64,000 bases of DNA from Streptomyces sp. L2 (GTDB lineage: Bacteria > Actinomycetota > Actinomycetes > Streptomycetales > Streptomycetaceae): positions 3,844,001 to 3,908,000 of the forward strand of contig NZ_QBDT01000001.1 in assembly GCF_004124325.1 (NCBI RefSeq), read 5' to 3'. The notes beneath the pieces are model-generated. The model had not been told where the DNA came from. It saw only the letters and a program-made list of their open reading frames with translations, and did not search any database. Of the stretch, positions 6,100 through 45,024 are shown one piece after another. A program made the position numbers and the translations under genes. Position 1 is the stretch's first letter; each line of letters begins with the position of its first letter.

Positions 6100-6113
6100 G
6101 TTTCACGTGAAAC
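6100..6113. other. parS site 1 (ParB-binding centromere element)
   Basis: Perfect GTTTCACGTGAAAC, inside a 20-bp palindrome (6097-6116), 16 bp after the cca stop codon. The 14-mer is the known Streptomyces parS to which ParB binds for origin segregation. Confidence 0.95.
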
Positions 6114-6145
6114 ATGACCGGGGGTGAGCCGGAGTACCGCATGAG

Positions 6146-6173
6146 GGGCGATGTTTCACGTGAAACATCGCCC
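6146..6173. other. parS site 2 within a 28-bp palindrome; probable bidirectional terminator
   Basis: Perfect parS at 6153-6166, extended on both sides into a perfect 28-bp palindrome starting GGGCGATG. It lies between the convergent cca and MFS genes. The stop codon of the MFS gene (TGA, complement of 6156-6158) falls inside the parS core. A GC-rich palindrome at a convergent junction could also act as a terminator. That second role is inferred. Confidence 0.92.
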
Positions 6174-7448
6174 TTCTTCTCGGCCTCGCCGCTGCTCGAA
6201 GCAGGTCATTCCCGCTGCGACTGCGCCGTAGATCACGGCGACCAGGATCACCAGGACCGCCGAGCGCCCGTCCGGCGGGAGCATCAGGGCAGCCACCCCC
6301 GCCGCGCCGACGAAGGCGACGTTGAAGAGCACGTCGTACACGGAGAAGATCCGGCCGCGGAACCCGTCCTCCACGGCGGCCTGGACGACCGTGTCCGTGG
6401 CGATCTTGGCGCCCTGGGTGATCAGACCCAGAACGAAGGCGGCCACCAGCAGCGGGCCGGTGGCGAAGAAGAGCCCCAGAGCCGGCACCAGCACCGTGGC
6501 CACACCGGCGCACACCGCGATCCAGCGCCAGGGGCCCAGGCGCCCCGCCGCCCACGGGGTCACGACGGCCGCCGCGAAGAAGCCCGCACCGGACACCGCG
6601 AGCGCCAGTCCCAGCAGCCTGAGGCCCTCGTCGGGGGTGGTGGAGAGGGCGTACCGGCACAGCATCAGCAGCAGGACGAGGAGTGCGCCGTAGCAGAAGC
6701 GCATGAGGGTCATCGCGGCCAGCGCCCAGGCCGCCTCCCTGCGTCTCGGTGCGGCGAGGTGCCGGACGGCGGCGAGAAGGTCGCGTGCCGTGTCGGCGAC
6801 CGCGGTCCGCAGGTGCGGCCGGGCTGGCGTGCGGTCAGGACCGAGAAGAGTTGGGGCCAGAGTCAGTGAGGTGAGGCTCGCGCACAGGTAGAGGAAGGCG
6901 CCGAGCAGGACCACCGCGGCATCGGAGTGCGACGTCACGAGTCGTACGCCGAAGGCGAGGCCCCCGCCCGCGGTCGCGGCAAGCGTTCCGGCCGTGGGGG
7001 AAAGGGAGTTGGCCAGCACCAGACGGCCGGTGTCGACCACACGCGGCAGCGCGGCGGACAGTCCGGCGAGGACGAACCGGTTGACGGCCGTGACACACAG
7101 CGCGGAGACGTAGAAGAGCCAGTCGGGTACCTGGCCGGCCATCAGAACCGCGGTGACCGCGGCCAGCAGGGCGCGCAGCAGGTTCCCGAAGACGAAGACC
7201 TGACGGCGCCGCCAGCGGTCCAGCAGCACACCGGCGAAAGGCCCGATCAGCGAGTAGGGCAGCAGCAGGACTGCCATCGCCGAGGCGATCGCGGCGGCCG
7301 AGGTCTGCTTCTCCGGGGAGAAGACGACGTAGGCGGCGAGCGCGACCTGGTAGACGCCGTCGGCACCCTGCGAGAGGAGACGGACGTACAGCAGACGCCG
7401 GAAGTCCCGCAGGCGCAGCAGGACGCGCAGGTCACGGACGACGGACAT
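6156..7448 (-). CDS. MFS-family membrane transporter
   Basis: A 430-residue protein with about 12 predicted transmembrane segments, similar in layout to the multidrug or macrolide exporters of the major facilitator superfamily. Visible features include an N-terminal LRDFRRLLYVRLLSQGADGVYQVALAAYV, a first-loop motif GVLLDRWRRRQVFV (MFS motif A-like), and a charged central loop (GPDRTPARPHL). The start ATG at 7446-7448 (MSVVRDLRV) is preferred over upstream in-frame codons, since the additional N-terminus is not hydrophobic. The last residues, GRCFT, are encoded by the parS palindrome, which also supplies the stop codon. The substrate cannot be predicted. Confidence 0.85.
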   Translation of the reverse strand: MSVVRDLRVLLRLRDFRRLLYVRLLSQGADGVYQVALAAYVVFSPEKQTSAAAIASAMAVLLLPYSLIGPFAGVLLDRWRRRQVFVFGNLLRALLAAVTAVLMAGQVPDWLFYVSALCVTAVNRFVLAGLSAALPRVVDTGRLVLANSLSPTAGTLAATAGGGLAFGVRLVTSHSDAAVVLLGAFLYLCASLTSLTLAPTLLGPDRTPARPHLRTAVADTARDLLAAVRHLAAPRRREAAWALAAMTLMRFCYGALLVLLLMLCRYALSTTPDEGLRLLGLALAVSGAGFFAAAVVTPWAAGRLGPWRWIAVCAGVATVLVPALGLFFATGPLLVAAFVLGLITQGAKIATDTVVQAAVEDGFRGRIFSVYDVLFNVAFVGAAGVAALMLPPDGRSAVLVILVAVIYGAVAAGMTCFEQRRGREEGRCFT

Positions 7449-7472
7449 GGGGCACAGCCTCACACATGCCGT

Positions 7473-7501
7473 GGGTCCCCGGGTCATGGACCCGGGGACC
7501 C
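7473..7501 (-). terminator. Hairpin terminator downstream of ino1
   Basis: Perfect 13-bp stem (GGGTCCCCGGGTC / GACCCGGGGACCC) with a 3-nt ATG loop. It sits between the ino1 stop codon and the MFS start codon, both on the minus strand. Confidence 0.75.
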
Positions 7502-7555
7502 TCACCGCCCTGGCAGGAGCGTTCTGGACGGACGCGCGCCGCGCGCCCTGTCTTT

Positions 7556-8638
7556 CTAGCGCTCGACGTCGCCGCGGATGAACTTCTCGACGTTCTCGCG
7601 GGCCTCGTCGTCGAAGTACTGGACCGGCGGGGACTTCATGAAGTACGAGGACGCCGACAGGATCGGGCCGCCGATGCCGCGGTCCTTGGCGATCTTCGCG
7701 GCGCGCAGCGCGTCGATGATGACACCGGCGGAGTTCGGGGAGTCCCAGACCTCCAGCTTGTACTCCAGGTTCAGCGGGACGTCACCGAAGGCACGGCCCT
7801 CGAGGCGGACGTAGGCCCACTTGCGGTCGTCCAGCCAGGCCACGTAGTCGGACGGGCCGATGTGGACGTTCTTCTCGCCGAGGTCCCGGTCCGGGATCTG
7901 GGAGGTGACGGCCTGGGTCTTGGAGATCTTCTTGGACTCCAGGCGCTCGCGTTCGAGCATGTTCTTGAAGTCCATGTTGCCGCCGACGTTCAGCTGCATC
8001 GTGCGGTCCAGGATGACACCCCGGTCCTCGAACAGCTTCGCCATGACGCGGTGCGTGATGGTGGCGCCGACCTGGGACTTGATGTCGTCACCGACGATCG
8101 GGACGCCCGCCTCGGTGAACTTGTCCGCCCACTCCTTGGTGCCGGCGATGAAGACCGGGAGGGCGTTGACGAAGGCGACCTTGGCGTCGATGGCGCACTG
8201 GGCGTAGAACTTCGCCGCGTCCTCGGAGCCGACCGGCAGGTAGCAGACCAGGACGTCGACCTGCTTGTCCTTCAGGATCTGGACAACGTCGACCGGCTGG
8301 GCCTCGGACTCCTCGATGGTCTGGCGGTAGTACTTGCCGAGGCCGTCGAGGGTGTGGCCGCGCTGGACGGTGACGCCGGTGTTGGGCACGTCGCAGATCT
8401 TGATGGTGTTGTTCTCGGAGGCGCCGATCGCGTCCGCGAGGTCGAGGCCGACCTTCTTGGCGTCGACGTCGAACGCGGCAACGAACTCGACGTCACGCAC
8501 GTGGTAGTCGCCGAACTGCACGTGCATCAGGCCGGGGACCTTCGACGCCGGGTCGGCGTCCTTGTAGTACTCGACGCCCTGCACCAGCGACGCGGCGCAG
8601 TTGCCCACGCCGACGATGGCTACGCGAACCGAACCCAT
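7556..8638 (-). CDS. ino1: Inositol-3-phosphate synthase
   Basis: Converts D-glucose 6-phosphate to 1D-myo-inositol 3-phosphate with NAD+. This is the entry to phosphatidylinositol and mycothiol. The 360-residue length equals that of the actinobacterial short form. The N-terminal Rossmann motif [12 protein letters not shown] begins near residue 9. The family segments [28 protein letters not shown] and [12 protein letters not shown] are intact. Start ATG 8636-8638 ([10 protein letters not shown]) is supported by the family N-terminus. The gene lies 41 bp downstream of the PadR gene on the same strand, so the pair may be co-transcribed and PadR-controlled. Confidence 0.95.
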
Positions 8639-8679
8639 TCCGGTTGCTCCCTGTGTGTACGAGTGAGGCCCTGCGGGTC

Positions 8680-9363
8680 TCACATGGCGGTGTCGTCGGA
8701 CGTATCCGGCCGGGAGGTCGTCCCGGGCCGGGGCAGGCCGTCCGTCGATCCATTGGTGGTGTCCTGCTGAGCGGACCCCCCGGACGCGGAACCTCTCAGG
8801 TCCCGCCCGGCCCGCTCGCTCTCGATGAGCTCGTTCAGCCAGCGCACTTCGCGCTCCACGGACTCCATTCCGTGGCGCTGGAGCTCAAGCGTGTAGTCGT
8901 CGAGGCGCTCCCGCGTGCGCACCAGGGAGGCGCGCATCTTCTCCAGGCGCTCCTCCAGGCGGCTGCGCCGGCCCTCCAGCACGCGCATGCGCACATCACG
9001 CGACGTCTGCCCGAAAAAGGCGAAACGTGCGGCGAAATGTTCGTCCTCATACGCGTCCGGACCGGTCTGCGAAAGCAACTCCTCGAAGTGCTCCTTACCT
9101 TCTGCCGTCAATCGGTACACGATCTTCGCGCGGCGTCCGGCGAGGGGAGCGGCGAGGGCTTCCTCATGGGTGCTGCCCGGTTCCTCGATCAACCAGCCGT
9201 TGAGGACGAGCGTCTTGAGGCAGGGGTACAGCGTTCCGTAGCTGAACGCCCGGAACACACCCAGTGAGGTGTTGAGTCGTTTGCGCAGCTCATAGCCGTG
9301 CATCGGGGACTCGCGCAGCAGGCCGAGTACGGCGAACTCCAGGATGCCGGAACGCCGGCTCAT
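8680..9363 (-). CDS. PadR-family transcriptional regulator
   Basis: A 227-residue winged-helix regulator. The N-terminus [30 protein letters not shown] is the PadR winged-helix signature. The C-terminal half is rich in Arg, Glu and Leu ([20 protein letters not shown]) and is likely the helical dimerisation domain. ATG 9361-9363 is preceded by a strong GGAGG. A 23-bp perfect inverted repeat lies 40 bp upstream and probably mediates autoregulation. PadR proteins usually repress and are released by ligands or phosphorylation. The signal here is unknown. The nearest targets would be itself, ino1 and possibly the divergent PBP gene. Confidence 0.9.
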
Positions 9364-9402
9364 GAACGCCTCCTCTCGGTCCGCAGCGTCTTTATCTCGC
9401 AC

Positions 9403-9425
9403 TGATGTATCGACTCGATACATCA
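9403..9425. promoter_or_regulatory. Inverted-repeat operator, probably for PadR
   Basis: Perfect inverted repeat of TGATGTATCGA around a single central C. It contains the ATGT...ACAT arms typical of PadR-family operators and lies directly upstream of the padR start codon. Direct binding is inferred. Confidence 0.7.
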
Positions 9426-9566
9426 CGACGATAGAACGACCTTCCCCGTGCGACAAGTGGGAAGACGGTGAACGGGATCACATCACCGATTCGCAGGAGG
9501 CAAGTTGCCTGTTTTGGGGTGAACTTCGGAGCTCGGAGGGTTTTGACGGTGCGTAGTCTGTGCGGC

Positions 9567-9719
9567 ATGCACACCACCGGGAACCACGCGACGCATGGGG
9601 ACGTCGTTGTCCCCGGTGCAGTACGGGTGAATGCCGAACCGACCGCATCCGTACTTCGGGGGGACCGGAAACCAGCCGCCGTTTCCAGGCGCGCACGGGT
9701 GCGCCTGCCCGAGGAGTAA
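9567..9719 (+). CDS. Possible 50-residue leader ORF upstream of the PBP gene
   Basis: ATG 9567 lies 7 nt after TAGTCT, the spacing expected for a leaderless message. The frame closes with TAA immediately before the GAGGAG of the PBP gene. The product (MHTTGNHATHGDVVV...) has no recognised domain, and its third-codon-position GC is lower than in neighbouring genes. It could be a translated leader coupled to PBP translation, or chance. Confidence is low. Confidence 0.25.
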   Translation: MHTTGNHATHGDVVVPGAVRVNAEPTASVLRGDRKPAAVSRRARVRLPEE

Positions 9720-9726
9720 TCGTTCG

Positions 9727-12381
9727 ATGAGCGAGCACCGTCGCAAACCGCCGCAGTCGCAGGAAGGCGGACGGGCCGCGGCCAGACGCGGCCAGTCCGG
9801 CCCGTCCTCCGGCCGCCGGGCGGCACCGCGAGGCGCCACCGGGTCTCCCGCCGACTCCTACGGATCCACTGGGTCCGGTTCTCCCGGGGCGGGGGGTGCG
9901 GAGCGTCCCTACGGCGGCCGTGCCGAGGCCCGCCGGGCGGCGCAGAGAGGCGGGCGGCGCAGAGGCGCGGACATCCCCGGTCCGGGCCGGCGCGGCGGCG
10001 CGGGCGGACCGGCCGGCCCCAGCCGCGGCAGGGGCCGTGCGACGACGGCACCCGGCAAGAAGCGGCTCATCGACTATCCCCGTGCGGGGAAGTACGGCTG
10101 GCGCCGCTGGGTGCCGTCCTGGAAGCTCGTCTCCGGGCTGTCCATCGGCTTCCTCGGATGCCTGGTCGCGCTGGTCGGCATCGGCTTCGCGATGGTGCGG
10201 ATCCCCAGTGAGAACGTCGCCGCGGAGTCGCAGAACAACGTCTACTACTGGGCCGACGGCAGTCAGATGGTGGCCACCGGCACCGGCGTGAACCGCCAGA
10301 ACATCACCATCGACAAGATCCCGCAGGCCATGCAGAACGCGGTGATCTCGGCCGAGAACAAGAGCTTCTACCAGGACTCGGGCGTCGACCCCATGGGTAT
10401 CGCGCGAGCCCTGGCCAACATGGCGCGCGGTGGCCAGACGCAGGGTGGTTCGACGATCACCCAGCAGTTCGTCAAGAACACCTACCTCAGCCAGGACCAG
10501 ACGGTCACCCGTAAGTTCAAGGAACTGTTCATCTCGGTCAAGGTGGGCACGAAGCTCAAGAAGCCGCAGATCCTGCAGGGCTACCTCAACACCTCGTACT
10601 ACGGACGGGGCGCCTACGGCATCCAGGCCGCCGCGCGGACCTACTTCGGCAAGGACGCGGTCGACCTCAAGCCGACCGAGTGCGCGCTCCTCGCGTCCCT
10701 GCTGAAGGGACCGACGTACTACGACCCGGCCGGCAACCCGGACTTCGACAAGAACGCGACGCGGGAGGCCAACCTCAAGCGCTCGCACGACCGCTGGTCC
10801 TGGATCCTCGGCGAGATGCACAAGGACGGGCACCTCACGGACGCCCAGTACCAGACGGCCATCAGCCACTACCCCACGACCAAGGGCCGCAAGGCGACCA
10901 AGGGCATGACGGGGCAGATCAGCTACCTGGTCGACACGGCCAAGAAGTACGTGCTGGACCACTCCGACATCACGCGGACGCAGTTCGACCGGGGCGGCTA
11001 CCAGATCTACACGACCTTCGACAAGAAGAAGGTCAACGCCCTGAGCGCGTCCGTGAAGAAGATCCAGAAGACGCGCCTGCACCCCCAGACGGACCCGCAC
11101 GACACGTACGTGCAGTTCGGCGCCGCGTCGGTGAAGCCCAACGACGGCGCGATCGTCGCGCTCTACGGTGGCCCCGGTTACGAGAACGGCCACTTCACCA
11201 ACAACGCCGATAGCCAGGGCGTGCCCGTCGGTTCGACATGGAAGCCGTTCGTCCTGGCCGCGGCCATGGAGTACGGCACCTACCGGGACCCCGGTGTCCC
11301 CGTCTCGCCGCTGAGCAAATACAACGGCAACGACCTGATCAAGATCAAGAAACAGGACGGCAGTTACTTCCTGAACAAGGACAACACGGTCTTCCGGCAG
11401 AAGAACGAGGGGACCAAGGACTGGGGCTACATCACCCTGCGCAAGGCGATGGAGCAGTCCATCAACTCGCCGTTCGTGCAGTTGGGCGTCGACGTGGGGA
11501 TGACACACGTCCGCGACGTCGCGGAATCGGCCGGCATCCCCGCGAAGAGCATGGCGAAGGACCTCAACCCGTCGTTCGCCATCGGTACCTCCACGCCCAG
11601 CGCGATCAGCATGGCGGACGCGTACGGCACGTTCGCCGCCTCCGGCAAGCAGGTGGACCCCTATTCGGTGACCGCCGTCAAGCACAACGGTGAGGAACTG
11701 CAGGGCTTCAGCAAGCCGAAGGTCAAGCAGGCGATGGACGCGAACATCGCCAACAACGTGACGGACGTCCTGGAGAACGTCATCCAGAACGGTACGGCGA
11801 CCAAAGCACAGGCTTTGGGGCGTACGGCGGCGGGCAAGACCGGCACCACCGACGACAACAAGTCGGCCTGGTTCGTCGGCTACACCCCGCAGCTGTCCAC
11901 AGCGGTGACGATGTTCCGGGAGAACCCCAAGAAGCCCGGGCTGATGTCCATGAACGGAACGGCCGGCGTACCTTCCATCCACGGTGGTGACATTCCGACG
12001 CTGGTCTGGACCGAGTACATGAAGGACGCGCTGAAGGGCGCCTCCGACACCGGCTTCCCGGAGGCCACCAAGATCGGCGAGCCGCAGAACGAGCCGGGCG
12101 CTCTGTCTCCGAGTCCCACGCCCTCGCCGACACCCACGCCGAGCGAAACGCAGAGCAACACGCCGAGCCCGACGCCCAGCGACACGGGGCCGTCCCCGAC
12201 CCCGACGCCGTCCGACACCTGCCAGTTCGGCTGGGGCAACAACTGCAACGGCAACGGCGGCACCGGGCCGGGTGGCACGGACGGTGGGACCAGTCCGTCA
12301 CCCACTGCCACGGAGACCACAGGGAACGGCAACACCAGAGGCAATGGCAACGGAGGCATCTTCGCGGGCCCGACCGGCTGA
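9727..12381 (+). CDS. Class A penicillin-binding protein (glycosyltransferase/transpeptidase)
   Basis: Polymerises lipid II into glycan strands and cross-links the peptides at the outer face of the membrane. The 884-residue protein has a basic, Gly/Ser/Arg-rich cytoplasmic N-terminus of about 130 residues. One transmembrane helix (about 133-158) follows, then a GT51 domain (AENKSFYQDSGVD, GGSTITQQFVKN, GRGAYGIQAAARTYFGK). The transpeptidase domain contains S503-T-W-K, S578-I-N and K704-T-G. The tail after about residue 790 is low-complexity Pro/Ser/Thr, then Gly/Asn, and probably threads into the wall. ATG 9727 has a GAGGAG upstream. A parS site and a strong terminator follow. Confidence 0.95.
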   Translation: MSEHRRKPPQSQEGGRAAARRGQSGPSSGRRAAPRGATGSPADSYGSTGSGSPGAGGAERPYGGRAEARRAAQRGGRRRGADIPGPGRRGGAGGPAGPSRGRGRATTAPGKKRLIDYPRAGKYGWRRWVPSWKLVSGLSIGFLGCLVALVGIGFAMVRIPSENVAAESQNNVYYWADGSQMVATGTGVNRQNITIDKIPQAMQNAVISAENKSFYQDSGVDPMGIARALANMARGGQTQGGSTITQQFVKNTYLSQDQTVTRKFKELFISVKVGTKLKKPQILQGYLNTSYYGRGAYGIQAAARTYFGKDAVDLKPTECALLASLLKGPTYYDPAGNPDFDKNATREANLKRSHDRWSWILGEMHKDGHLTDAQYQTAISHYPTTKGRKATKGMTGQISYLVDTAKKYVLDHSDITRTQFDRGGYQIYTTFDKKKVNALSASVKKIQKTRLHPQTDPHDTYVQFGAASVKPNDGAIVALYGGPGYENGHFTNNADSQGVPVGSTWKPFVLAAAMEYGTYRDPGVPVSPLSKYNGNDLIKIKKQDGSYFLNKDNTVFRQKNEGTKDWGYITLRKAMEQSINSPFVQLGVDVGMTHVRDVAESAGIPAKSMAKDLNPSFAIGTSTPSAISMADAYGTFAASGKQVDPYSVTAVKHNGEELQGFSKPKVKQAMDANIANNVTDVLENVIQNGTATKAQALGRTAAGKTGTTDDNKSAWFVGYTPQLSTAVTMFRENPKKPGLMSMNGTAGVPSIHGGDIPTLVWTEYMKDALKGASDTGFPEATKIGEPQNEPGALSPSPTPSPTPTPSETQSNTPSPTPSDTGPSPTPTPSDTCQFGWGNNCNGNGGTGPGGTDGGTSPSPTATETTGNGNTRGNGNGGIFAGPTG

Positions 12382-12426
12382 CGGAACGGTCCGGACCCGC
12401 TGACGCCGCCATGGACCGCCAGGGCT

Positions 12427-12440
12427 GTTTCACGTGAAAC
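12427..12440. other. parS site 3
   Basis: Perfect GTTTCACGTGAAAC between the PBP gene and its downstream hairpin. Confidence 0.95.
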
Positions 12441-12442
12441 AT

Positions 12443-12473: not shown

Positions 12474-12511
12474 TCGGCGTATTCCCCGAGACGTACGGCA
12501 GGATGTGCCCC

Positions 12512-18844: not shown

Positions 18845-18880
18845 TCGCCGAGTGATCGCTGAGCTCGTCCGAGCCGGTGA

Positions 18881-18909
18881 AGGGGCCGCACCTTTGAGGT
18901 GCGGCCCCT
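18881..18909 (+). terminator. Terminator of the ribosomal protein operon
   Basis: A 12-bp stem, AGGGGCCGCACC / GGTGCGGCCCCT, with loop TTTGA. It is followed by TTTCCC, 36 bp after the rplI stop. Confidence 0.82.
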
Positions 18910-18967
18910 TTCCCATGGCCGGGCGGAGGCAGGGGACTCGGTGGGCCGGAGGCCGGCGAGTGATCAC

Positions 18968-19039
18968 GTTTCACGTGAAACAGGGCGGCACCTGCGGTTT
19001 CACGTGAAACATGGCGGCACGCGCGGTTTCACGTGAAAC
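18968..19039. repeat. Triple parS array, 29-bp tandem repeat (parS sites 4-6)
   Basis: Three perfect parS cores at 18968-18981, 18997-19010 and 19026-19039, exactly 29 bp apart. The spacers of copies 1 and 2 are near-identical (AGGGCGGCACCTGCG versus ATGGCGGCACGCGCG), so the array is a tandem duplication of a 29-bp unit. It ends 3 bp before the MATE gene stop codon. Confidence 0.95.
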
Positions 19040-22375: not shown

Positions 22376-23761
22376 ATGACGACATCTGAGGAAGAGCTGC
22401 TCCCTTCGACCCGGCGGGCCCTGGTGCACCGGATCGCCGTGGCGCAGGCGGAGGGCAGGGCGCCGTCGCTGGTCGCGGCGGTGGTCCGGGGCGGCCGGAC
22501 GGTGTGGCACGGGGCGCGTAGCTCAGTGGACGGGCACGGCCCGGACGAGAACGTGCAGTACCGGATCGGGTCGATCACCAAGACGTTCACCGCGGTGCTG
22601 GTGCTCCGCCTGCGCGACGAGGGGCTGCTCGATCTCGGTGACGCCCTGGAGAAGCACCTGCCGGGCACGGGCGCGGGCGAGGCGACGATCGCCGAACTGC
22701 TGGCGCACACCGCGGGACTGGCGGCCGAGTCGCCCGGGCCCTGGTGGGAGCGGACGCCCGGCTCGCTGCGGCCCGAGCTGAGCGATGTGCTGGGCGAGCA
22801 GCCCTTCCTGCACCCCGTCGGACGGACGCACCACTACTCCAACCCCGGCTACACCCTGCTCGGCGCGCTGGTGGAGGAACTGCGCGGTGCTCCCTGGGAG
22901 GACGTGCTGCGCCGGGAGGTGCTTGACCCGCTGGGCCTGCGCCGTACGAGCGCCCAGCCGCTGGCGCCGCACGCGGGCGGCTGGGCGGTGCACCCGTGGG
23001 CGGACGCGCTGCTGCCGGAGCCGCTGGAGGACCTGGGCCGGATGACGCCTGCCGGCCAGCTGTGGTCCACCAGCGGCGACCTCGCCCGCTTCGCCGCGTT
23101 CCTGGCCGAAGGAGACGAGCGGGTGCTGAGCGCGGAATCGGTGCGTGAGATGCGGACGCCTTCCGCGCCCGCGGCCGCCGCGGAGGTGGCGGATGGGGTC
23201 ACCTATGGGCTCGGTATGCAGATCCAGCACCGCGACGGCAGGCTTCTCGTCGGGCACTCCGGTTCGTTGCCTGGTTTTCTGGCGAACCTCGTCATTAGCG
23301 TGGAGGACGACGTGGCCGCGGTGGTGCTGACCAACTGCACCAGCGGCCCGCTGGTCGGTGCGGTGGGTGCCGACCTCGTCCGCATCGTCGCCGAGGCGGA
23401 ACCACGCATCCCGGATCCCTGGCGCCCGCTGCGTGACGTGGAACCGGAGGTCCTGGAACTGGCCGGGCCCTGGTACTGGGGGACGAACGCTTTCGCGCTG
23501 CGCGTGACGGCCGACAGGCTCCTCAGCCTGGGGCCGTTGTCCGGTCCCGGCAGGCGCGCCCGCTTCCGGGCGAACCCGGACGGCACCTTGACGGGTCTGG
23601 AGGGGTACTACGCCGGGGAGCCGTTGCGGCCGGTGCGGCGCTCTGACGGGTCCCTGAGCCATCTCGACCTGGGGTCGTTCATCTTCACCCGGGAGCCGTA
23701 CGACACGGAGGCTCCCGTGCCGGGTGGAGTGGATCCCGAGGGGTGGCGGGGCATCGGTTGA
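22376..23761 (+). CDS. Serine hydrolase, beta-lactamase/class C PBP fold
   Basis: A 461-residue protein. The active-site motif is S66-I-T-K69, followed by YSN (second motif) and HSG (KTG-equivalent). HTAGLAAESPGPWW and YSNPGYTLLGALVEE are typical of the family that includes esterases, D-aminopeptidases and class C beta-lactamases. The last about 120 residues form a separate beta domain (YYAGEPLRPVRRSDGSLSHL). No signal peptide is evident, so it is likely cytoplasmic. It starts 54 bp after dnaB. The substrate is unknown, and true beta-lactamase activity is not implied. Confidence 0.85.
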   Translation: MTTSEEELLPSTRRALVHRIAVAQAEGRAPSLVAAVVRGGRTVWHGARSSVDGHGPDENVQYRIGSITKTFTAVLVLRLRDEGLLDLGDALEKHLPGTGAGEATIAELLAHTAGLAAESPGPWWERTPGSLRPELSDVLGEQPFLHPVGRTHHYSNPGYTLLGALVEELRGAPWEDVLRREVLDPLGLRRTSAQPLAPHAGGWAVHPWADALLPEPLEDLGRMTPAGQLWSTSGDLARFAAFLAEGDERVLSAESVREMRTPSAPAAAAEVADGVTYGLGMQIQHRDGRLLVGHSGSLPGFLANLVISVEDDVAAVVLTNCTSGPLVGAVGADLVRIVAEAEPRIPDPWRPLRDVEPEVLELAGPWYWGTNAFALRVTADRLLSLGPLSGPGRRARFRANPDGTLTGLEGYYAGEPLRPVRRSDGSLSHLDLGSFIFTREPYDTEAPVPGGVDPEGWRGIG

Positions 23762-23782
23762 CCCGGTTCGGCTTCTTCGTCG

Positions 23783-23818
23783 CCGGGGGGCCTGTTTCAC
23801 GTGAAACAGGCCCCCCGG
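23783..23818. other. parS site 7 inside a 36-bp perfect palindrome; likely bidirectional terminator
   Basis: The parS core is at 23794-23807. Flanks CCGGGGGGCCT and their complement extend it to a perfect 36-bp palindrome between the convergent serine hydrolase and GNAT genes. Its GC-rich arms are terminator-like. ParB binding follows from the perfect core. Confidence 0.93.
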
Positions 23819-23840
23819 TCGCGTACGGTCGTCCGGCGTC

Positions 23841-24293
23841 TCAGAGTCGTAGCTTGAAGCCCTCGTGGGAGGCGGTGAAGCCGAGCCGCTCGTAGAAGCG
23901 GTGGGCGTCGGTGCGGGTCTTGTCGGACGTCAGCTGCACCATGCTGCAGCGGAGGTCGCGGGAGGTGTCGATGGCCCACTCGACGAGCCGGGTGCCCAGT
24001 CCGGTGCCGCGTTCGTCGGCGTGCACCCGGACGGCCTCGACGAGCGCGCGGGTCGCCCCCTTGCGGGAGAGCCCCGGGATGATCGTGAGCTGCAGGGTCC
24101 CGACGACGCGTCCCTCCCGGACGGCTACGACGAGATGCTGGTTCGCGTCCGCGTTCAGGCGTTCCAGCGCCGCCCTGTAGGGGCTCAGGTCCTCGGGTGA
24201 CTCACGCTGGGCGCCCAGCGGATCGTCGGCGAGCAGGGCGACGATCGCCGGGAGGTCGTCCGCGGTCGCCCGCCGTATTTCAAGATCTCCCAT
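23841..24293 (-). CDS. GNAT-family N-acetyltransferase
   Basis: A 150-residue single GNAT domain. It has MGDLEIRRATADDLPAIVALL at the start, the acetyl-CoA pyrophosphate loop VHADERGTGLGTRLVEWA, and the C-terminal HRFYERLGFTASHEGFKLRL. It lies 9 bp downstream of the MarR gene on the same strand, so the two probably form an operon. The acceptor substrate is unknown. Confidence 0.88.
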   Translation of the reverse strand: MGDLEIRRATADDLPAIVALLADDPLGAQRESPEDLSPYRAALERLNADANQHLVVAVREGRVVGTLQLTIIPGLSRKGATRALVEAVRVHADERGTGLGTRLVEWAIDTSRDLRCSMVQLTSDKTRTDAHRFYERLGFTASHEGFKLRL

Positions 24294-27033: not shown

Positions 27034-27047
27034 GTTTCACGTGAAAC
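27034..27047. other. parS site 8
   Basis: Perfect GTTTCACGTGAAAC in the gap between the tandem-GNAT and Nudix genes. Confidence 0.95.
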
Positions 27048-27635: not shown

Positions 27636-27649
27636 GTTCCACGTGAAAC
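27636..27649. other. Degenerate parS (one mismatch)
   Basis: GTTCCACGTGAAAC differs from parS at one position (T4 to C). It lies just upstream of the Nudix gene start. Weaker ParB binding is possible. Confidence 0.5.
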
Positions 27650-28615: not shown

Positions 28616-28766
28616 GGCAGGACGACCCCTCTCCCTGCCCTCCTCCGGCCCCCAGGCAGGCATCAACTATAAATAAGTCGATAGGTCTCTGTCGTTACCG
28701 TGATTGGACACTGACGGAGAGTCAATTAGCCTTGTTCGCGCGGTCCTTCGCGCGCGGGACCGCACG

Positions 28767-28801
28767 GCGGTCCGAGCCACGAGGGGGGAGGCTCGGACCG
28801 C
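28767..28801 (-). terminator. Hairpin terminator after the cystathionine lyase gene
   Basis: Perfect 12-bp stem, GCGGTCCGAGCC / GGCTCGGACCGC, with an 11-nt loop, just beyond the stop codon of the minus-strand gene. Confidence 0.75.
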
Positions 28802-28814
28802 TCTCACTGCCCGA

Positions 28815-34795: not shown

Positions 34796-34809
34796 GTTTC
34801 ACGTGGAAC
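34796..34809. other. Degenerate parS in riboswitch arm (copy 1)
   Basis: GTTTCACGTGGAAC, one mismatch from parS. Confidence 0.5.
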
Positions 34810-34816
34810 GACCGAC

Positions 34817-34830
34817 GTTTCACGGGAAAC
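34817..34830. other. Degenerate parS in riboswitch arm (copy 2)
   Basis: GTTTCACGGGAAAC, one mismatch from parS, 21 bp after copy 1. Confidence 0.5.
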
Positions 34831-34891: not shown

Positions 34892-36688
<1,797 letters not shown>

Positions 36689-36734: not shown

Positions 36735-36740
36735 CGGGGG

Positions 36741-39115: not shown

Positions 39116-40228
39116 CTAGCGGCCCTCCGGTGCCCTCGGCGGGCTGACCGTCGTACGGGGCGGGCGTCGCTGGGACGAGGTACGCACGATCATCTCGGTC
39201 GGTATCACCTGCTCGACCGGGTGGTCCGACTCCACGCCCTCGATGGCGTCGATGAGGAGCTGGACCACCGCCGTGCCGATGCGGCGCGGTTTCAGGGAGA
39301 GCGTGGTGATGGGCGGCTCGGTGTTGGCGTACACCGTCGACTCGCTGCAGCACACCAGCAGCAGGTCCTCGGGTACCCGCAGCCCGTAGCGGCGGGCGGC
39401 GGCGAGCAGGTCGGTGCCGTTGGGGTCGAACAGGCCGTAGACCGCGTCGGGCCGGTCGGGGCGGGCCAGCAGGCGGTCGGCGGCGACGGCGCCCGCGCAG
39501 GGGTCGTGCGCCGGGTAGGACTCGTACACCGGGTCCTGGCCGACGCGTTCGCACCAGCGCAGGTAGGCGGTGGTGGACAGGTGGGTGTAGGTGTCGGTCG
39601 TGGTGCCCGTGAGGAGGCCGATGCGGCGGGCGCCGGCGTCGGCGAGGTGGTCGAGGATGCCGAGTACGGCGGCCTCGTGGTCGTTGTCGACCCAGGCGGT
39701 GACGGGCAGGGCACCCGCCGGACGGCCGTCGGAGACGACGGGCAGGCCCTGCCGGACCAGCTCGCTGACCACCGGGTCCTGGTCGGAGGGGTCGATGACG
39801 ACCGTGCCGTCGAGGGCGACGTTGGACCAGACGTCGTGACGGGAGGTCGCGGGCAGGATGACCAGCGCGTATCCGCGGGCGAGCGCGGCGGAGGTGGCGG
39901 CGCGCGCCATCTCGGCGAAGTACGCGAACTCCGTGAAGGTGAAAGGTTCATCCCCGTACGTCGTCACGGTCAGGCCGATCAGTCCCGACTTGCCGGTACG
40001 GAGGGTGCGTGCGGCGGCCGAGGGCCGGTAGCCCAGCCGGTCGGCGACCTCGCGGACATGGCGCCGGGTGGCGTCCGGGAGCCGGCCCTTGCCGTTGAGG
40101 GCGTCGGAGACGGTCGTGATGGACACTCCGGCGGCGGCGGCGACGTCTCTGATGCCCGCCCGGCCCGGCCGACTGCCTCGACGTGAGGTTTCCGCGCGGC
40201 TCACCTGGTGCTTCCCTGCTGCTGTCAT
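39116..40228 (-). CDS. LacI-family transcriptional regulator
   Basis: A 370-residue repressor. A basic extension of about 24 residues precedes the LacI helix-turn-helix and hinge (GIRDVAAAAGVSITTVSDALNGKGRLPDATRRHVREVADRLGY). A periplasmic-binding-type effector domain follows, with a short variable tail. ATG 40226-40228 was chosen, and the upstream in-frame sequence is not family-like. It is divergent from hisC across 428 bp. No sugar genes are adjacent, so the ligand and regulon are unknown. Confidence 0.9.
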   Translation of the reverse strand: MTAAGKHQVSRAETSRRGSRPGRAGIRDVAAAAGVSITTVSDALNGKGRLPDATRRHVREVADRLGYRPSAAARTLRTGKSGLIGLTVTTYGDEPFTFTEFAYFAEMARAATSAALARGYALVILPATSRHDVWSNVALDGTVVIDPSDQDPVVSELVRQGLPVVSDGRPAGALPVTAWVDNDHEAAVLGILDHLADAGARRIGLLTGTTTDTYTHLSTTAYLRWCERVGQDPVYESYPAHDPCAGAVAADRLLARPDRPDAVYGLFDPNGTDLLAAARRYGLRVPEDLLLVCCSESTVYANTEPPITTLSLKPRRIGTAVVQLLIDAIEGVESDHPVEQVIPTEMIVRTSSQRRPPRTTVSPPRAPEGR

Positions 40229-40656
40229 GGCGAGCCGATAGTAGGGCTCATGCGGTGGGGTAGTGCGGACGCATATGCACACGTTGACAGGCACGTTTCT
40301 GCATGGTCGAGGTGGGTCAACTACATTAGAAACCAAGGCAGTTGCTGGACGTGGCGCTAGGACCTGACTTGTCGAGGCGTGGGTGCCTGTCGACCGTCTG
40401 ATGTCTCGAAGAGGTCTCAACTCACCTTCACGAGGGATGCGCGCCACGGCGCAAGCTACCGGCGCATAGATATATGTAGGGCGCGCCCCCTGATACGTAC
40501 GCCTTCGGGTGCCGATGCCCCTGATGTACTTGATGACAGTGGGGCTGGTGAGGTTTGCCGCGCACCTGTTCGCAGCGGGGCCGAATCCTCATAAGGTGAG
40601 CAGTATTGGAAGCCGGCGGCGTCGACGGGCCGCCGGTGGTCACGAGGAGGACTGCG
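40229..40656. other. LacI/hisC intergenic region
   Basis: 428 bp between divergent genes, with lower GC than its surroundings in places (GCATAGATATATGTAGGG near 40464). A TTGACA (40284-40289) is present with no convincing -10 at the usual spacing. No ORF with coding character, tRNA or operator was recognised. Confidence 0.4.
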
Positions 40657-41736
40657 GTGAGCGAGACGAGCCCCAAGCTGCGCGCCGAGCTGGAGGGGAT
40701 CCCCACCTACAAGCCGGGCAAGCCGGCCGCGGCCGGTGGCCCGGTCGCGTACAAGCTGTCCTCCAACGAGAACCCGTACCCGCCGCTGCCGGGCGTGATG
40801 GAGAGCGTGACCGCGGCGGCCCACGACTTCAACCGGTACCCCGACATGGCCTGCACCGGGCTGATGAACGAGCTGTCGGAGCGCTTCGGTGTGCCGGCTT
40901 CCCACGTGGCGACCGGTACCGGTTCGGTGGGCGTCGCCCAGCAGCTGCTCCAGGCAACCAGCGGCCCCGGCGACGAGGTCATCTACGCCTGGCGGTCCTT
41001 CGAGGCGTACCCGATCATCACGCAGATCAGCGGCGCCCGGTCCGTGCGGGTCCCGCTCACGCCGGGCGATGTGCACGACCTGGACGCCATGGCGGCGGCC
41101 ATCACCGACCGGACGCGGCTGATCTTCGTCTGCAACCCCAACAACCCGACCGGCACGGTGGTGCAGAGGGCGGAGCTGGAGCGGTTCCTGGACCGGGTCC
41201 CCGGCGATGTGCTGGTGGTCCTGGACGAGGCCTACCGGGAGTTCATCCGTGACCCCGAGGTGCCCGACGGTGTCGAGCTGTACCGGGAGCGGCCCAACGT
41301 CTGTGTGCTGCGCACCTTCTCCAAGGCGTACGGCCTCGCCGGGCTCCGCGTCGGTTTCGCGATCGCCCACGAACCGGTCGCCGCGGCGCTGCGCAAGACG
41401 GCTGTGCCGTTCGGCGTGAGCCAGCTCGCGCAGGACGCGGCCGTCGCCTCGCTGCGTGCCGAGGACGAACTGCTGGGCCGGGTGGGCTCACTGGTGTGCG
41501 AGCGCACGCGCGTGGTCGACGCGCTGCGCGCCCAGGGCTGGACCGTGCCGGAGACCCAGGCGAACTTCGTGTGGCTGCGACTGGGGGAGCGCACGGCGGC
41601 GTTCGCGACTGCCTGCGAGGAGCACGGTGTGGTGGTCCGGCCGTTCCCGGGCGAGGGTGTGCGGGTGACGGTCGGCGAGACCGAGGCGAACGACATCTTC
41701 CTGAAGGTGGCGGAGGCGTTCCGCAAGGAGTTCTGA
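40657..41736 (+). CDS. hisC: Histidinol-phosphate/aromatic aminotransferase
   Basis: A 359-residue class I/II PLP aminotransferase. It shows [13 protein letters not shown] at the start, [21 protein letters not shown], and the PLP-lysine segment [16 protein letters not shown]. It interconverts histidinol phosphate and imidazole-acetol phosphate, or transaminates aromatic amino acids. It lies outside the his operon, so it is the second HisC-type copy commonly seen in Streptomyces, and the aromatic role is possible. GTG 40657 has GAGGAGG upstream. Confidence 0.92.
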
Positions 41737-41797
41737 GCGCGCCGTCAGGCCTTCAGCGAGGGCTTGCAAGGCTTTCTGGCAGGCGGTTTTCCGCCGA

Positions 41798-41824
41798 CTG
41801 AGCCCCGCCCTGTGCGGGGCTCAG
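41798..41824. terminator. Bidirectional terminator after hisC
   Basis: An 11-bp stem, CTGAGCCCCGC / GCGGGGCTCAG, with loop CCTGT. It overlaps the stop codon of the convergent minus-strand gene. Confidence 0.8.
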
Positions 41825-42195
41825 TCGTTGACGGCCTCTACGCGTACGGGGTCTCCGTCCCGCACGGTCGCCAGGACCCTGGGGTCGCCGTCCAGGTGTC
41901 CGAGGACGTTGCAGGGGCTCGCGAGGCGGCATTCCTCGCCCCGGGAGATGGGCGTGGGGCCGTAGGGGAGGGCGAGGGCGTCGCCGTCCGTCCAGAACGC
42001 CACCGTGCCCGGCTCGACGACCTGCCGGGCGTCTGTTTCACGTGAAACAGACACACCTGTGTCGAAGTAGACCTCCTCTCCCCAGGTGTGTGCCGAGGAG
42101 ATGAGCGGCAGTGCCTTCTGCAGGGCCTGCGTGGTGGGTGTGTCGTCGAGCGTCGCGGTGAGCTGGCCGGCGGGCCAGGAGATTCGTATCTGCAT
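41821..42195 (-). CDS. Cyclophilin-like-fold protein with an internal parS
   Basis: A 124-residue protein, MQIRISWPAGQLTATLDDTPTT..., with HTWGEEVYFDTGV and YGPTPISRGEECRLASPCNVLG. These resemble the bacterial/archaeal cyclophilin-like (DUF369-type) small beta-barrel family. A perfect parS lies in frame and encodes the VSRET segment. ATG 42193-42195 fits the family start, and longer frames add non-conserved residues. The function is unknown. Confidence 0.75.
   Translation of the reverse strand: MQIRISWPAGQLTATLDDTPTTQALQKALPLISSAHTWGEEVYFDTGVSVSRETDARQVVEPGTVAFWTDGDALALPYGPTPISRGEECRLASPCNVLGHLDGDPRVLATVRDGDPVRVEAVND
42035..42048. other. parS site 9 (intragenic)
   Basis: Perfect GTTTCACGTGAAAC at the centre of a 22-bp palindrome (42031-42052), wholly within a reading frame. 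Confidence 0.95.
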
Positions 42196-42289
42196 GAGAC
42201 GCAATTCAACAAGCTGTTGAATTTCTTGCCAAGGGGTTGACGCTGAGGTCAAGGGGGACCCCCCTGCCTCGCGTCGAAAATCGGTACGT

Positions 42290-42295
42290 CATAAT
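42290..42295 (+). promoter_or_regulatory. Putative cydA -10 element
   Basis: CATAAT, 10 bp before the Rex site. This places transcription start at about 42302, next to the operator. Confidence 0.4.
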
Positions 42296-42305
42296 AGCTT
42301 GTGAA

Positions 42306-42321
42306 TGTGAACGCGTTCACA
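42306..42321. promoter_or_regulatory. Rex operator (ROP) of the cyd operon
   Basis: TGTGAACGCGTTCACA is the exact consensus palindrome bound by the NADH/NAD+ sensor Rex, known to repress cydABCD in S. coelicolor when NADH is low. It lies 84 bp upstream of the cydA start codon, just downstream of the probable transcription start. Confidence 0.93.
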
Positions 42322-42405
42322 AGCGCGTTCCGCTTGCTCCCTTATGTACCTGACAAAAGGGGGCATCACGCCGCTGTACCACGGCGAAGTAAGGAGAGTG
42401 ACGAC

Positions 42406-43914
42406 GTGGACCTGGCTCTGGCGCCGGAAACACTGGCGCGCTGGCAGTTCGGCATCACCACCGTCTACCACTTCCTGTTCGTCCCCCTGACGATCTCTCT
42501 GGCCGCCCTCACGGCCGGACTGCAGACCGCCTGGGTGCGCACGGAGAAGGAGAAGTACCTCAGGGCCACCAAGTTCTGGGGCAAGCTCTTCCTGATCAAC
42601 ATCGCGATGGGCGTCGTCACCGGCATCGTGCAGGAGTTCCAGTTCGGCATGAACTGGTCGGACTACTCGCGCTTCGTCGGAGACATCTTCGGCGCCCCGC
42701 TCGCCTTCGAGGCCCTGATCGCCTTCTTCTTCGAGTCCACCTTCATCGGACTGTGGATCTTCGGCTGGGACAAGCTGCCCAAGAAGATCCATCTGGCCTG
42801 CATCTGGATGGTCTCCGTCGGCACGATCCTGTCGGCCTACTTCATCCTCGCGGCCAACTCCTGGATGCAGCACCCCGTCGGCTACAAGATCGACAAGGTG
42901 CGGGGACGCGCCCAGCTGACCGACTTCTGGGCCGTGCTGACCCAGAACACCGCGCTCAGCCAGGCCTTCCACACCCTCTCGGCGGCCTTCCTGACCGGCG
43001 GCGCCTTCATGGTGGGCATCTCGGCCTACCACCTGGCCCGCAAGAAGCACATCCGCACGATGAAGACCTCGCTGCGACTCGGCCTGGTCACCGTGGTCGT
43101 CGCCGGACTGCTCACCGCGGTCAGCGGTGACGTGCTCGGCAAGGTCATGTTCAAGCAGCAGCCCATGAAGATGGCGGCGGCGGAGGCGCTGTGGGACGGG
43201 CAGAAGCCCGCACCGTTCTCGATCTTCGCCTACGGCGACGTGGAGAAGGGCCACAACACCGTGGCCATCGAGATCCCGGGCCTGCTGTCCTTCCTCGCCA
43301 ACGACGACTTCACCTCCGAAGTCCCCGGCATCAACGACGTCAACAAGGCCGAACAGCAGAAGTTCGGGCCCGGCGACTACCGGCCCAACATCCCGGTCGC
43401 GTTCTGGGGATTTCGCTGGATGATCGGCTTCGGCATGGCCTCCTTCGCCATCGGCCTGGCCGGGCTCTGGCTGACCCGCAAGAAGTTCCTGCTGCCACAG
43501 CACCTGCGGGTCGGGGACGACGAGGTGCCGAACCTCGTGCTGTTCCGGAACAAGGCGCTCAGCCCGAGGCTCACCCCCTGGTACTGGCGCATCGCCACCT
43601 GGACCCTGGCCTTCCCGCTGATCGCCAACTCCTGGGGCTGGATCTTCACCGAGATGGGCCGGCAGCCGTGGGTCGTCTACGGCGTCCTGCAGACCCGGGA
43701 CGCGGTCTCCCCCGGTGTCTCCCAGGGCGAGGTCCTCACCTCGATGATCGTCCTCACGTCGCTCTACGCCATCCTGGCCGTCGTCGAGGTCAGGCTGCTC
43801 ACCAAGTACGTCAAGGCCGGTCCGCCCGAGCTGACCGACGCCGACCTCAACCCGCCCACGAAGATCGGCGGCACCGGCCAGGACGCCGACAAGCCGATGG
43901 CCTTCTCGTACTAG
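42406..43914 (+). CDS. cydA: Cytochrome bd oxidase subunit I
   Basis: The quinol-oxidising, haem-bearing subunit of the high-affinity bd terminal oxidase, with 502 residues and 9 predicted helices. It contains LARWQFGITTVYHFLFVPL with the haem-ligand histidine at residue 22, the conserved GRQPWVVYG loop and the short Q-loop typical of Gram-positive enzymes. GTG 42406 is preceded by AAGGAGAG. It is the first gene of cydA-cydB-cydCD. The upstream Rex site makes it redox-responsive. Confidence 0.95.
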   Translation: MDLALAPETLARWQFGITTVYHFLFVPLTISLAALTAGLQTAWVRTEKEKYLRATKFWGKLFLINIAMGVVTGIVQEFQFGMNWSDYSRFVGDIFGAPLAFEALIAFFFESTFIGLWIFGWDKLPKKIHLACIWMVSVGTILSAYFILAANSWMQHPVGYKIDKVRGRAQLTDFWAVLTQNTALSQAFHTLSAAFLTGGAFMVGISAYHLARKKHIRTMKTSLRLGLVTVVVAGLLTAVSGDVLGKVMFKQQPMKMAAAEALWDGQKPAPFSIFAYGDVEKGHNTVAIEIPGLLSFLANDDFTSEVPGINDVNKAEQQKFGPGDYRPNIPVAFWGFRWMIGFGMASFAIGLAGLWLTRKKFLLPQHLRVGDDEVPNLVLFRNKALSPRLTPWYWRIATWTLAFPLIANSWGWIFTEMGRQPWVVYGVLQTRDAVSPGVSQGEVLTSMIVLTSLYAILAVVEVRLLTKYVKAGPPELTDADLNPPTKIGGTGQDADKPMAFSY

Positions 43915-43929
43915 GCGGAGGGAACAGTC

Positions 43930-44940
43930 ATGCAACTTCACGACGTCTGGTTCGTCCTGATCGCCGTCCTGTGGACCGGCTACTTCTTCCTGGAGGGATT
44001 CGACTTCGGTGTCGGCATCCTCACCAAGCTGCTCGCCCGGAACCGGCCCGAGCGCCGGGTACTGATCAACACCATCGGACCCGTCTGGGACGGCAACGAG
44101 GTCTGGCTGCTGACGGCGGGCGGCGCGACCTTCGCGGCCTTCCCCGACTGGTACGCCACCCTCTTCTCCGGCTTCTACCTGCCGCTGCTGGTCATCCTGG
44201 TCTGCCTGATCGTCCGGGGCGTGGCCTTCGAGTACCGGGCGAAGCGGCCCGAGGAGAACTGGCAGCGCAACTGGGAGACGGCGATCTTCTGGACCTCGCT
44301 GATCCCGGCCTTCCTCTGGGGCGTGGCCTTCGGGAACATCGTGCGGGGCGTGAAGATCGACCAGCACTTCGAGTACGTCGGCAGCCTCGCCGACCTGCTC
44401 AACCCGTACGCCCTCCTCGGCGGCCTGGTGACGCTCACCCTGTTCACCTTCCACGGGACGGTGTTCACCGCGCTCAAGACCGTCGGCGACATCAGGCTGC
44501 GGGCCCGCGCAATGGCGCTGCGGGTCGGACTCGTCACCGCTGTCCTGGCCCTGGGCTTCCTGCTCTGGACCCAGGCGCACAGCGGGAACGGCAGGAGCCT
44601 GGTGGCCCTGATCGTGGCGGTCGCCGCGCTGGTCGCCGCGCTGGTGGCCAACCAGGCGGGACGTGAGGGCTGGTCGTTCGCGCTGTCCGGCCTCACCATC
44701 GTGGCGGCCGTGGCGATGCTCTTCCTGTCGCTGTTCCCGAACGTGATGCCGTCCACGCTCGACGCGAACTGGAGCCTCACGGTCACCAATGCCTCGTCGA
44801 GCCCGTACACCCTGAAGATCATGACCTGGTTGGCGGCGGTCGCCACACCGCTCGTGCTGCTGTACCAGGGCTGGACCTACTGGGTGTTCCGCAAGCGCAT
44901 CGGGACGCAGCACATCGCGCCGGACGCCTCCGCGCACTGA
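43930..44940 (+). CDS. cydB: Cytochrome bd oxidase subunit II
   Basis: The 336-residue membrane partner of CydA. MQLHDVWFVLIAVLWTGYFFLEGFDFGVGIL at the N-terminus and NTIGPVWDGNEVWLL are signatures of CydB. It is 15 bp after cydA with GGAGGGA upstream. Two parS sites separate it from cydCD. Confidence 0.95.
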   Translation: MQLHDVWFVLIAVLWTGYFFLEGFDFGVGILTKLLARNRPERRVLINTIGPVWDGNEVWLLTAGGATFAAFPDWYATLFSGFYLPLLVILVCLIVRGVAFEYRAKRPEENWQRNWETAIFWTSLIPAFLWGVAFGNIVRGVKIDQHFEYVGSLADLLNPYALLGGLVTLTLFTFHGTVFTALKTVGDIRLRARAMALRVGLVTAVLALGFLLWTQAHSGNGRSLVALIVAVAALVAALVANQAGREGWSFALSGLTIVAAVAMLFLSLFPNVMPSTLDANWSLTVTNASSSPYTLKIMTWLAAVATPLVLLYQGWTYWVFRKRIGTQHIAPDASAH

Positions 44941-44973
44941 GTTTGACGGGGAGGGTGTTTCACGATGACCCGT

Positions 44974-44987
44974 GTTTCACGTGAAAC
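44974..44987. other. parS site 10
   Basis: Perfect GTTTCACGTGAAAC in the cydB-cydCD gap. A decayed relative, GTTTCACGATGACC, lies 17 bp upstream (44957-44970). Confidence 0.95.
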
Positions 44988-45010
44988 ACCATCCCTGGAC
45001 CGAAGGGCGT

Positions 45011-45024
45011 GTTTCACGTGAAAC
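45011..45024. other. parS site 11, overlapping the cydCD start
   Basis: Perfect parS. It spans the probable GTG start codon of cydCD (45018-45020). Confidence 0.95.

What the first reader, a model, noticed from the sequence alone, without database searches (positions are those of the whole stretch)
6100..45024. Eleven perfect parS sites mark this as a centromere segment
GTTTCACGTGAAAC occurs at 6100, 6153, 12427, 18968, 18997, 19026, 23794, 27034, 42035, 44974 and 45011. A 14-bp perfect palindrome is expected by chance far less than once in 64 kb. It is the known Streptomyces ParB site, which is concentrated around oriC. Most copies lie at gene ends. The density falls to zero after 45 kb, which may be the edge of the dense array on this side of the origin.
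Basis: partly seen in the sequence, partly recalled or inferred. Interest (0 to 1): 0.75.

Follow-up and report, generated by a model that had tools for sequence, protein, structure and literature searches.

The report
Centromere sites built into RNA hairpins
This stretch is the ordinary chromosome-segregation (parS) cluster beside the replication origin of a Streptomyces chromosome, but at two gene borders the parS sequence is also the tip of a long hairpin, probably a transcription terminator, whose stem keeps its pairing while its letters change between species.

Summary
Confirmed: 11 exact parS 14-mers in the window, 20 in the 8.07-Mb genome, all within 349 kb around dnaA and parB. This is the known Streptomyces oriC-proximal array. 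It does not end at 45 kb: another exact site lies 1.5 kb past the window.

New here: some sites are cores of longer perfect palindromes (36 bp at 23794, 28 bp at 6153). In 18 Streptomyces arrays an excess appears only in convergent-gene gaps (40 of 104 sites with 4 bp or more per side, shuffled mean 4.5; tandem 6 of 83, shuffled 4.1). 39 of those 40 come from two gaps, after cca and between a beta-lactamase-like and a GNAT gene. In 72 orthologues of the latter, stem letters differ but pairing is kept (244 cells changed on both sides, shuffled 92; 128 double changes inferred on a tree, 13-20 out of register). Gaps with a parS-tipped stem rarely hold another hairpin (2 of 27; 25 of 40 otherwise), though limited free space explains part of this.

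Best reading: these parS sites double as terminator tips. The hairpin is shown; termination is inferred.

The parts
6095..6118 (.). parS at 6100-6113 as core of a 24-bp perfect palindrome; cca (4617-6083 +) / MFS (6156-7448 -) convergent gap
   Evidence: RNA fold of the gap z -5.4 on the plus strand
6146..6173 (.). parS at 6153-6166 as core of a 28-bp perfect palindrome; contains the stop codon of the MFS gene
   Evidence: z -5.1 on the minus strand
12427..12440 (.). parS between a PBP gene and a GT87 gene (tandem), flank pairing 1 bp only
18880..18910 (+). dedicated 14-bp-stem hairpin after rplI, not part of parS (comparison gap)
18968..19039 (.). three parS at exact 29-bp spacing in the rplI-MATE convergent gap; flanks not palindromic
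23783..23818 (.). parS at 23794-23807 as core of a 36-bp perfect palindrome in the 79-bp gap between convergent beta-lactamase/DUF7586 (22376-23761 +) and GNAT (23841-24293 -) genes
   Evidence: z -7.4 plus strand, -6.3 minus strand
27034..27047 (.). parS between GNAT and NUDIX genes (tandem), no extension
27636..27649 (.). 1-mismatch parS GTTCCACGTGAAAC near the 5' end of the NUDIX gene
34796..34830 (.). two 1-mismatch parS-like sites 21 bp apart, upstream of the gene at 34904
42031..42052 (.). parS at 42035-42048 in a 22-bp palindrome, between an aminotransferase gene and cydA (not a convergent gap)
   Evidence: z -2.3
44949..44995 (+). parS at 44974-44987; its right half and flank pair with an upstream parS half-site to form a hairpin after cydB
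   Evidence: z -2.9
45011..45024 (.). parS that carries the predicted GTG start codon of fused cydCD (45018)

Best explanation
The window holds the densest part of the oriC-proximal parS array of a Streptomyces chromosome. ParB-CTP loads at these palindromes, spreads, and forms the segregation complex moved by ParA (established for the genus, not tested here). In two convergent-gene gaps, downstream of cca and between the beta-lactamase-like and GNAT genes, the same 14 bp is also the apex of an RNA hairpin: 5' GUUUC, loop ACGU, GAAAC 3', on a stem of up to 19 further pairs. Stem pairing is conserved while stem sequence is not. I infer that these hairpins are the 3' ends (bidirectional, U-poor terminators or 3'-end stabilisers) of the two converging transcripts. 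One DNA element would thus serve as a ParB loading site in double-stranded DNA and as a terminator in RNA. Shown: array, hairpin, covariation, gap specificity, scarcity of other hairpins in the same gaps. Inferred: ParB binding in this strain, termination activity, any interaction of the two functions.
For: Array. Extension in the own genome: 20 exact sites, summed extension 43 bp, shuffled mean 14, none of 20,000 shuffles as high; 4 of the 5 sites with 4 bp or more lie in convergent gaps. 18 arrays, 228 sites: convergent sites 4.25 bp mean (shuffled 1.03, largest 1.62), tandem 1.01 (1.19), divergent 0.80 (1.04), in-gene 1.84 (1.17, largest 3.16). BLA-GNAT gap in 80 named Streptomyces loci: 72 carry an exact core, 57 of 72 with 4 bp or more per side. 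cca gap: 30 of 36 sites in 18 genomes with 4 bp or more; 78% of 12 flank pairs complementary in register, 28-35% out of register. Covariation. RNA folding of 72 windows with the core held fixed: median z -4.3, 67 of 72 below -2. Scarcity of other hairpins: none with stem of 7 bp or more in 18 of 18 cca gaps and 16 of 17 BLA gaps, while 13 of 16 rplI-MATE gaps, whose parS is not extended, have one; pooled 2 of 27 against 25 of 40, Fisher p 4e-6, and 2 of 22 against 17 of 28 in gaps of 60-130 bp (p 3e-4). parS density in convergent gaps 2.54 per kb, tandem 0.69, divergent 0.11.
Against: No transcript 3'-end data were seen for any of these gaps. No clear U-tract: T fraction in the 10 nt after the stem is 0.23 on the BLA strand and 0.17 on the other (54 loci), although Streptomyces terminators are reported U-poor (PMC8269248, PMC12207403, passages). 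Covariation cannot tell an RNA hairpin from a DNA cruciform. The scarcity of other hairpins is partly a matter of room: gap lengths are alike (median 92 bp in both classes), but the longest stretch left free is 37 against 79.5 (medians); requiring 40 free bases leaves 2 of 12 against 25 of 38 (p 0.006), requiring 50 leaves 2 of 7 against 25 of 37 (p 0.09). The gaps are orthologues of a few loci, so these p-values overstate independence. 15 of 72 BLA-GNAT sites extend under 4 bp; on the tree 104 inferred changes in register break a pair; one measure, pairs with any change on both sides, does not differ from shuffles (11 against 10.1). Other convergent parS gaps (rplI-MATE 26 sites, window -6079/-5386 17 sites) show no clear excess. 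One extended site in the window, 42035, is not in a convergent gap. Mismatch types G-T and A-C were 8 and 4, inconclusive. Context calls rest on my own simple gene finder.
Confidence: 0.76

Rival explanations
1. Plain parS array; the longer palindromes are chance or mere G+C-rich composition.
For: Many sites (138 of 320 in the 80 loci) have no extension at all.
Against: Flank shuffles keep composition and never reach the observed extension (own genome, BLA-GNAT group, convergent sites). Covariation score 0.499 against 0.138 shuffled and 0.066-0.166 slid.
Confidence: 0.02
2. The extension is a longer ParB operator: flanking bases are contacted by ParB.
For: T/A at the first flank position is common (61 of 72 UA). 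Some genomes repeat a 22-bp CGAT...ATCG form up to 10 times (sites of two such genomes read).
Against: Beyond the first pair the flanks in the BLA-GNAT gap have many sequences (38 different 8-mers among 49 stems of 8 bp or more), so a protein reading bases cannot explain them. Tandem and divergent sites show no excess.
Confidence: 0.07
3. DNA-level origin: a cruciform that matters as DNA, or palindrome perfection by template switching during replication, with no RNA role.
For: Perfect symmetry, both G-T and A-C mismatches, and stem covariation are all expected.
Against: A mutational process or a ParB-related cruciform should act at every parS. Here the excess is at certain gene 3' ends, and the comparison gap without it mostly has an ordinary hairpin (13 of 16).
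Confidence: 0.13

Closest known systems
oriC-proximal parS clusters of Streptomyces (S. coelicolor, S. venezuelae) in the ParABS system
   Same: oriC-centred cluster and similar copy number: 20 here, 23 central plus 1 distal in S. coelicolor and 16 in S. venezuelae (PMC4852455, passages). That the published core is this same 14-mer is recalled; the passage seen prints it with one differing letter.
   Different: The passages read do not mention that some sites are tips of co-varying hairpins at gene 3' ends; the words terminator and intergenic do not occur in the main text of PMC12207404 and PMC12511625.
Streptomyces intrinsic / U-poor 'I-shaped' terminators seen by Term-seq
   Same: Stable G+C-rich hairpin, little U-tract, covariation in stems (PMC8269248 and PMC12207403, passages).
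   Different: Here the apex is an invariant protein-binding site, exact in 72 of 80 loci.
DNA uptake sequences of Neisseria and Haemophilus that form terminators (recalled, not looked up)
   Same: A repeated DNA recognition word doubles as part of a terminator hairpin.
   Different: There, two inverted copies form the stem; here a single palindromic site forms the apex and the stem is free to vary. The recognising system is chromosome segregation.

Membership tests
Chromosomal ParABS centromere (parS cluster) | exact or near-exact 14/16-bp parS palindromes | tested here: met
   11 exact in the window, 20 in the genome
Chromosomal ParABS centromere (parS cluster) | clustered around oriC/dnaA, not genome-wide | tested here: met
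   20 of 20 in 349 kb around dnaA
Chromosomal ParABS centromere (parS cluster) | chromosomal ParB encoded nearby | tested here: met
   TIGR00180 match at C1:3836765, 205.7 bits
Chromosomal ParABS centromere (parS cluster) | ParB bound in vivo at the sites | not testable with these tools
   only published for relatives
Intrinsic terminator (Streptomyces type) | stable stem-loop shortly after stop codons | tested here: met
   stems begin 12 nt (6095) and 22 nt (23783) after the upstream stop codon; gap folds z -5.1 to -7.4
Intrinsic terminator (Streptomyces type) | stem kept by compensatory change | tested here: met
Intrinsic terminator (Streptomyces type) | U-rich tract after the stem | tested here: inconclusive
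   T fraction 0.23 and 0.17 over 10 nt; U-poor types are reported in the genus
Intrinsic terminator (Streptomyces type) | transcript 3' end mapped at the hairpin | not testable with these tools

The most novel reading that the evidence does not exclude
parS loading sites of the Streptomyces centromere are built into bidirectional transcription terminators, and the two functions depend on each other: termination from both sides keeps RNA polymerase off the ParB loading site, and ParB bound at or spreading from the site may in turn block or tune read-through. The centromere would be wired into the ends of conserved housekeeping genes.
Probability: 0.3. Interest if true: 0.85.

Novelty: new variant of a known kind. 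Interest (0 to 1): 0.6.

Why it matters
ParB clamps load at parS and slide along DNA that is also transcribed, and how the two processes are kept apart is, as far as I know, an open matter. A centromere site that is at the same time the hairpin at the end of both neighbouring genes gives a concrete, testable arrangement. It also offers one reason why particular parS copies stay at the same gene borders across a genus.

Tried and rejected
Chance or composition as the cause of the long palindromes was rejected by flank shuffles and register controls. 'All parS are extended' was rejected: in the 80 loci the BLA-GNAT group stands far out (7.81 against 1.43), while groups A, B, E and the rest lie near their shuffled means; group C (rplI-MATE) is somewhat above its mean (0.80 against 0.49, largest shuffle 0.90). 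In the 18 arrays one tandem group near window -9636/-8401 has slightly raised in-register pairing (0.44 against 0.26-0.38). A strand preference of the hairpin from mismatch types was inconclusive. A clear U-tract was not found. Outside the family only three genomes were looked at: 13 exact and one 1-mismatch site (9, 2 and 3 per locus), none extended beyond 2 bp, too few to decide. Other genera of the same family do show long parS palindromes, but the 24 loci looked at were fetched with a pattern that already demands 4 bp per side, so they show presence, not frequency. Literature: searches combining parS with terminator, hairpin or stem-loop words listed 20 entries in all; none has a title or abstract start about parS sites as terminators, and I opened none of them. 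Jakimowicz 2002 and Livny 2007 were not held, so prior mention there or in other papers not held cannot be excluded.

Full report
OBSERVATION. The 14-mer occurs exactly at the 11 stated places, plus three places with one mismatch (shuffles expect 0.09 matches with up to two mismatches). The window is C1:3844001-3908000 of an 8,073,926-base genome in two contigs. Genome-wide there are 20 exact sites, all between C1:3717532 and 4066729, and none of the reversed pattern. All five 1-mismatch sites lie between 3.67 and 3.88 Mb, and two of three 2-mismatch sites lie near 3.76 and 3.84 Mb; the third is at 0.906 Mb; the reversed control with two mismatches gives 2. dnaA is at 3829462-3829947 on the minus strand and the chromosomal parB domain at 3836765-3837301. 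So 17 of 20 sites lie on the parB side of dnaA, and the window starts about 14 kb from dnaA. The 'edge' at 45 kb is not the end: exact sites follow at 3909469 and 4066716.

KNOWN FRAME. All 25 same-genus genomes searched, own included, hold 8 to 36 exact copies; the 16 genomes of the same order or class hold 0 to 9. S. coelicolor is reported to have 23 central and one distal parS, and S. venezuelae 16; almost all ParB ChIP-seq peaks in the latter corresponded to parS sites, with complexes over about 40 kb near oriC (PMC4852455, passages).

WHAT WAS MISSED. Five of the 20 exact sites are centres of perfect palindromes of 22-36 bp; four of these five lie in convergent gaps, the fifth (window 42035) does not. 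Pairing left and right flanks of different sites at random gives a summed extension of 14 bp; the observed value is 43, reached in none of 20,000 shuffles. In the 80 Streptomyces loci there are 320 exact sites. They cluster at orthologous gene borders. Only the site between the convergent beta-lactamase/DUF7586 and GNAT genes is strongly extended: 72 loci, mean 7.81 bp per side against 1.43 shuffled (largest 2.56 of 2,000), 57 of 72 with 4 bp or more, up to 19. Of the 8 loci without an exact core there, 5 keep a core with one or two mismatches, 4 of them with a listed stem of 6-14 bp around it; 3 have no parS-like core.

COVARIATION. The 72 sequences align without gaps (alignment A1). The hairpin structure has 89.1% of cells paired (shuffled 68.6%, slid 41-53%), 244 cells with both sides changed (shuffled 91.6, slid 44-70) and a covariation score of 0.499 (shuffled 0.138, slid up to 0.166); the count of pairs with any two-sided change, 11 against 10.1 shuffled, does not discriminate. 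RNAalifold finds 14 of these 16 pairs by itself. Because related sequences inflate shuffle tests, I also placed the changes on a FastTree tree of the neighbouring gene (73 sequences, one parsimony reconstruction): in register, 128 inferred changes go from one Watson-Crick pair to another and 104 break a pair; with partners offset by 1-4, 13-20 go from pair to pair. 683 of 876 cells are Watson-Crick in register, 251-324 offset. In the window itself the 23762-23840 gap folds with z -7.4 on one strand and -6.3 on the other.

WHERE IT HAPPENS. In 18 arrays of 20-100 kb (this genome and 17 relatives; 228 exact sites; genes called by my own codon-score script) the excess is confined to convergent gaps: 104 sites, mean 4.25 (shuffled 1.03). 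Tandem (83), divergent (10) and in-gene (31) sites lie within the shuffled range; the in-gene class is above its mean, 7 sites with 4 bp or more against 2.7, largest shuffle 8. Of the 40 convergent sites with 4 bp or more, 39 come from two gaps: the cca 3' gap, with two parS per genome (30 of 36 sites; each of 18 genomes has at least one, 12 have both), and the BLA-GNAT gap (9 of 15). The rplI-MATE gap (26 sites) and the convergent gap near window -6079/-5386 (17 sites) show none of note. A few cydB-cydCD sites (4 of 23) reach 7-10 bp. parS density per kb of gap is 2.54 in convergent, 0.69 in tandem and 0.11 in divergent gaps (gaps of 10 bp or more; orthologous gaps recur across genomes).

OTHER HAIRPINS IN THE SAME GAPS. 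If the parS hairpin does the work of a terminator, its gap should need no other. In the cca gaps none of 18 has another hairpin of stem 7 bp or more; among 17 BLA gaps one has, in a genome whose parS is not extended; two of the 17 have no exact parS and no other hairpin either. In the rplI-MATE gaps, where parS is not extended, 13 of 16 carry a separate hairpin, 11 of them with stems of 14-20 bp. Pooled over all convergent parS gaps of 10-300 bp: a separate stem of 8 bp or more in 2 of 27 gaps with an extended parS and in 25 of 40 without (Fisher p 4e-6). Gap length does not explain this (median 92 bp in both; 2 of 22 against 17 of 28 at 60-130 bp), but room does in part: with at least 40 free bases in a row it is 2 of 12 against 25 of 38 (p 0.006), with 50 it is 2 of 7 against 25 of 37 (p 0.09). 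In convergent gaps of 30-250 bp without parS, 28 of 97 have a stem of 10 bp or more, none when shuffled, so such hairpins are common in convergent gaps in these genomes.

MECHANISM. Shown by sequence: the array, the hairpin, its conservation, its location. Established for the genus: ParB loading and spreading at parS. Inferred: the hairpin ends transcripts from both sides. Streptomyces 3' ends are often highly structured with few U residues (PMC8269248 and PMC12207403, passages), which fits the weak T enrichment here (0.23 and 0.17). A DNA-only role (cruciform or template-switch product) remains possible but does not explain the gap specificity.

OTHER DUAL USES. The parS at 45011 contains the predicted GTG start codon of cydCD, and the same holds in 15 of 16 genomes listed for that gap (the sixteenth has a different called neighbour). 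The parS at 6153 contains the stop codon of the MFS gene. A hairpin after cydB pairs a parS half-site with the parS at 44974.

VERDICT. The finding as written is correct and already known in kind. The hairpin embedding is well supported here, and I saw no description of it in the searches listed under Tried and rejected; key older papers were not readable. Its function as a terminator is likely but untested.

Noticed in passing
45011-45024: parS supplies the predicted GTG start codon (45018) of fused cydCD; same arrangement in 15 of 16 genomes listed for this gap.
   Followed up: partly
18968-19039: Three parS at exactly 29-bp spacing, the first two units 90% alike over 29 nt, as if tandemly duplicated.
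   Followed up: no
28680-28806: Rfam Scr3920 small RNA, 131 bits, on the + strand.
   Followed up: no
G000:C2:116819-117313 (L018): The second contig, about 295 kb by subtraction, encodes its own ParB-family protein (73 bits), but none of the 20 exact parS lie on it; probably a plasmid with its own partition site.
   Followed up: no
L217-L225 (G271), L226-L231 (G384): Five of 394 family genomes carry a 22-bp CGAT-parS-ATCG form 7-10 times per genome; in G271 several stretches hold two or three parS close together. Perhaps a clade-specific longer ParB site.
   Followed up: partly
L189-L191, L193, L198-L200, L203, L205: In another genus of the family (g22) nine loci have long parS palindromes (8-18 bp per side) between homologues of the window genes 6156-7448 and 7556-8638 (tandem by my calls), so parS-centred palindromes occur at a different gene border there.
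   Followed up: partly
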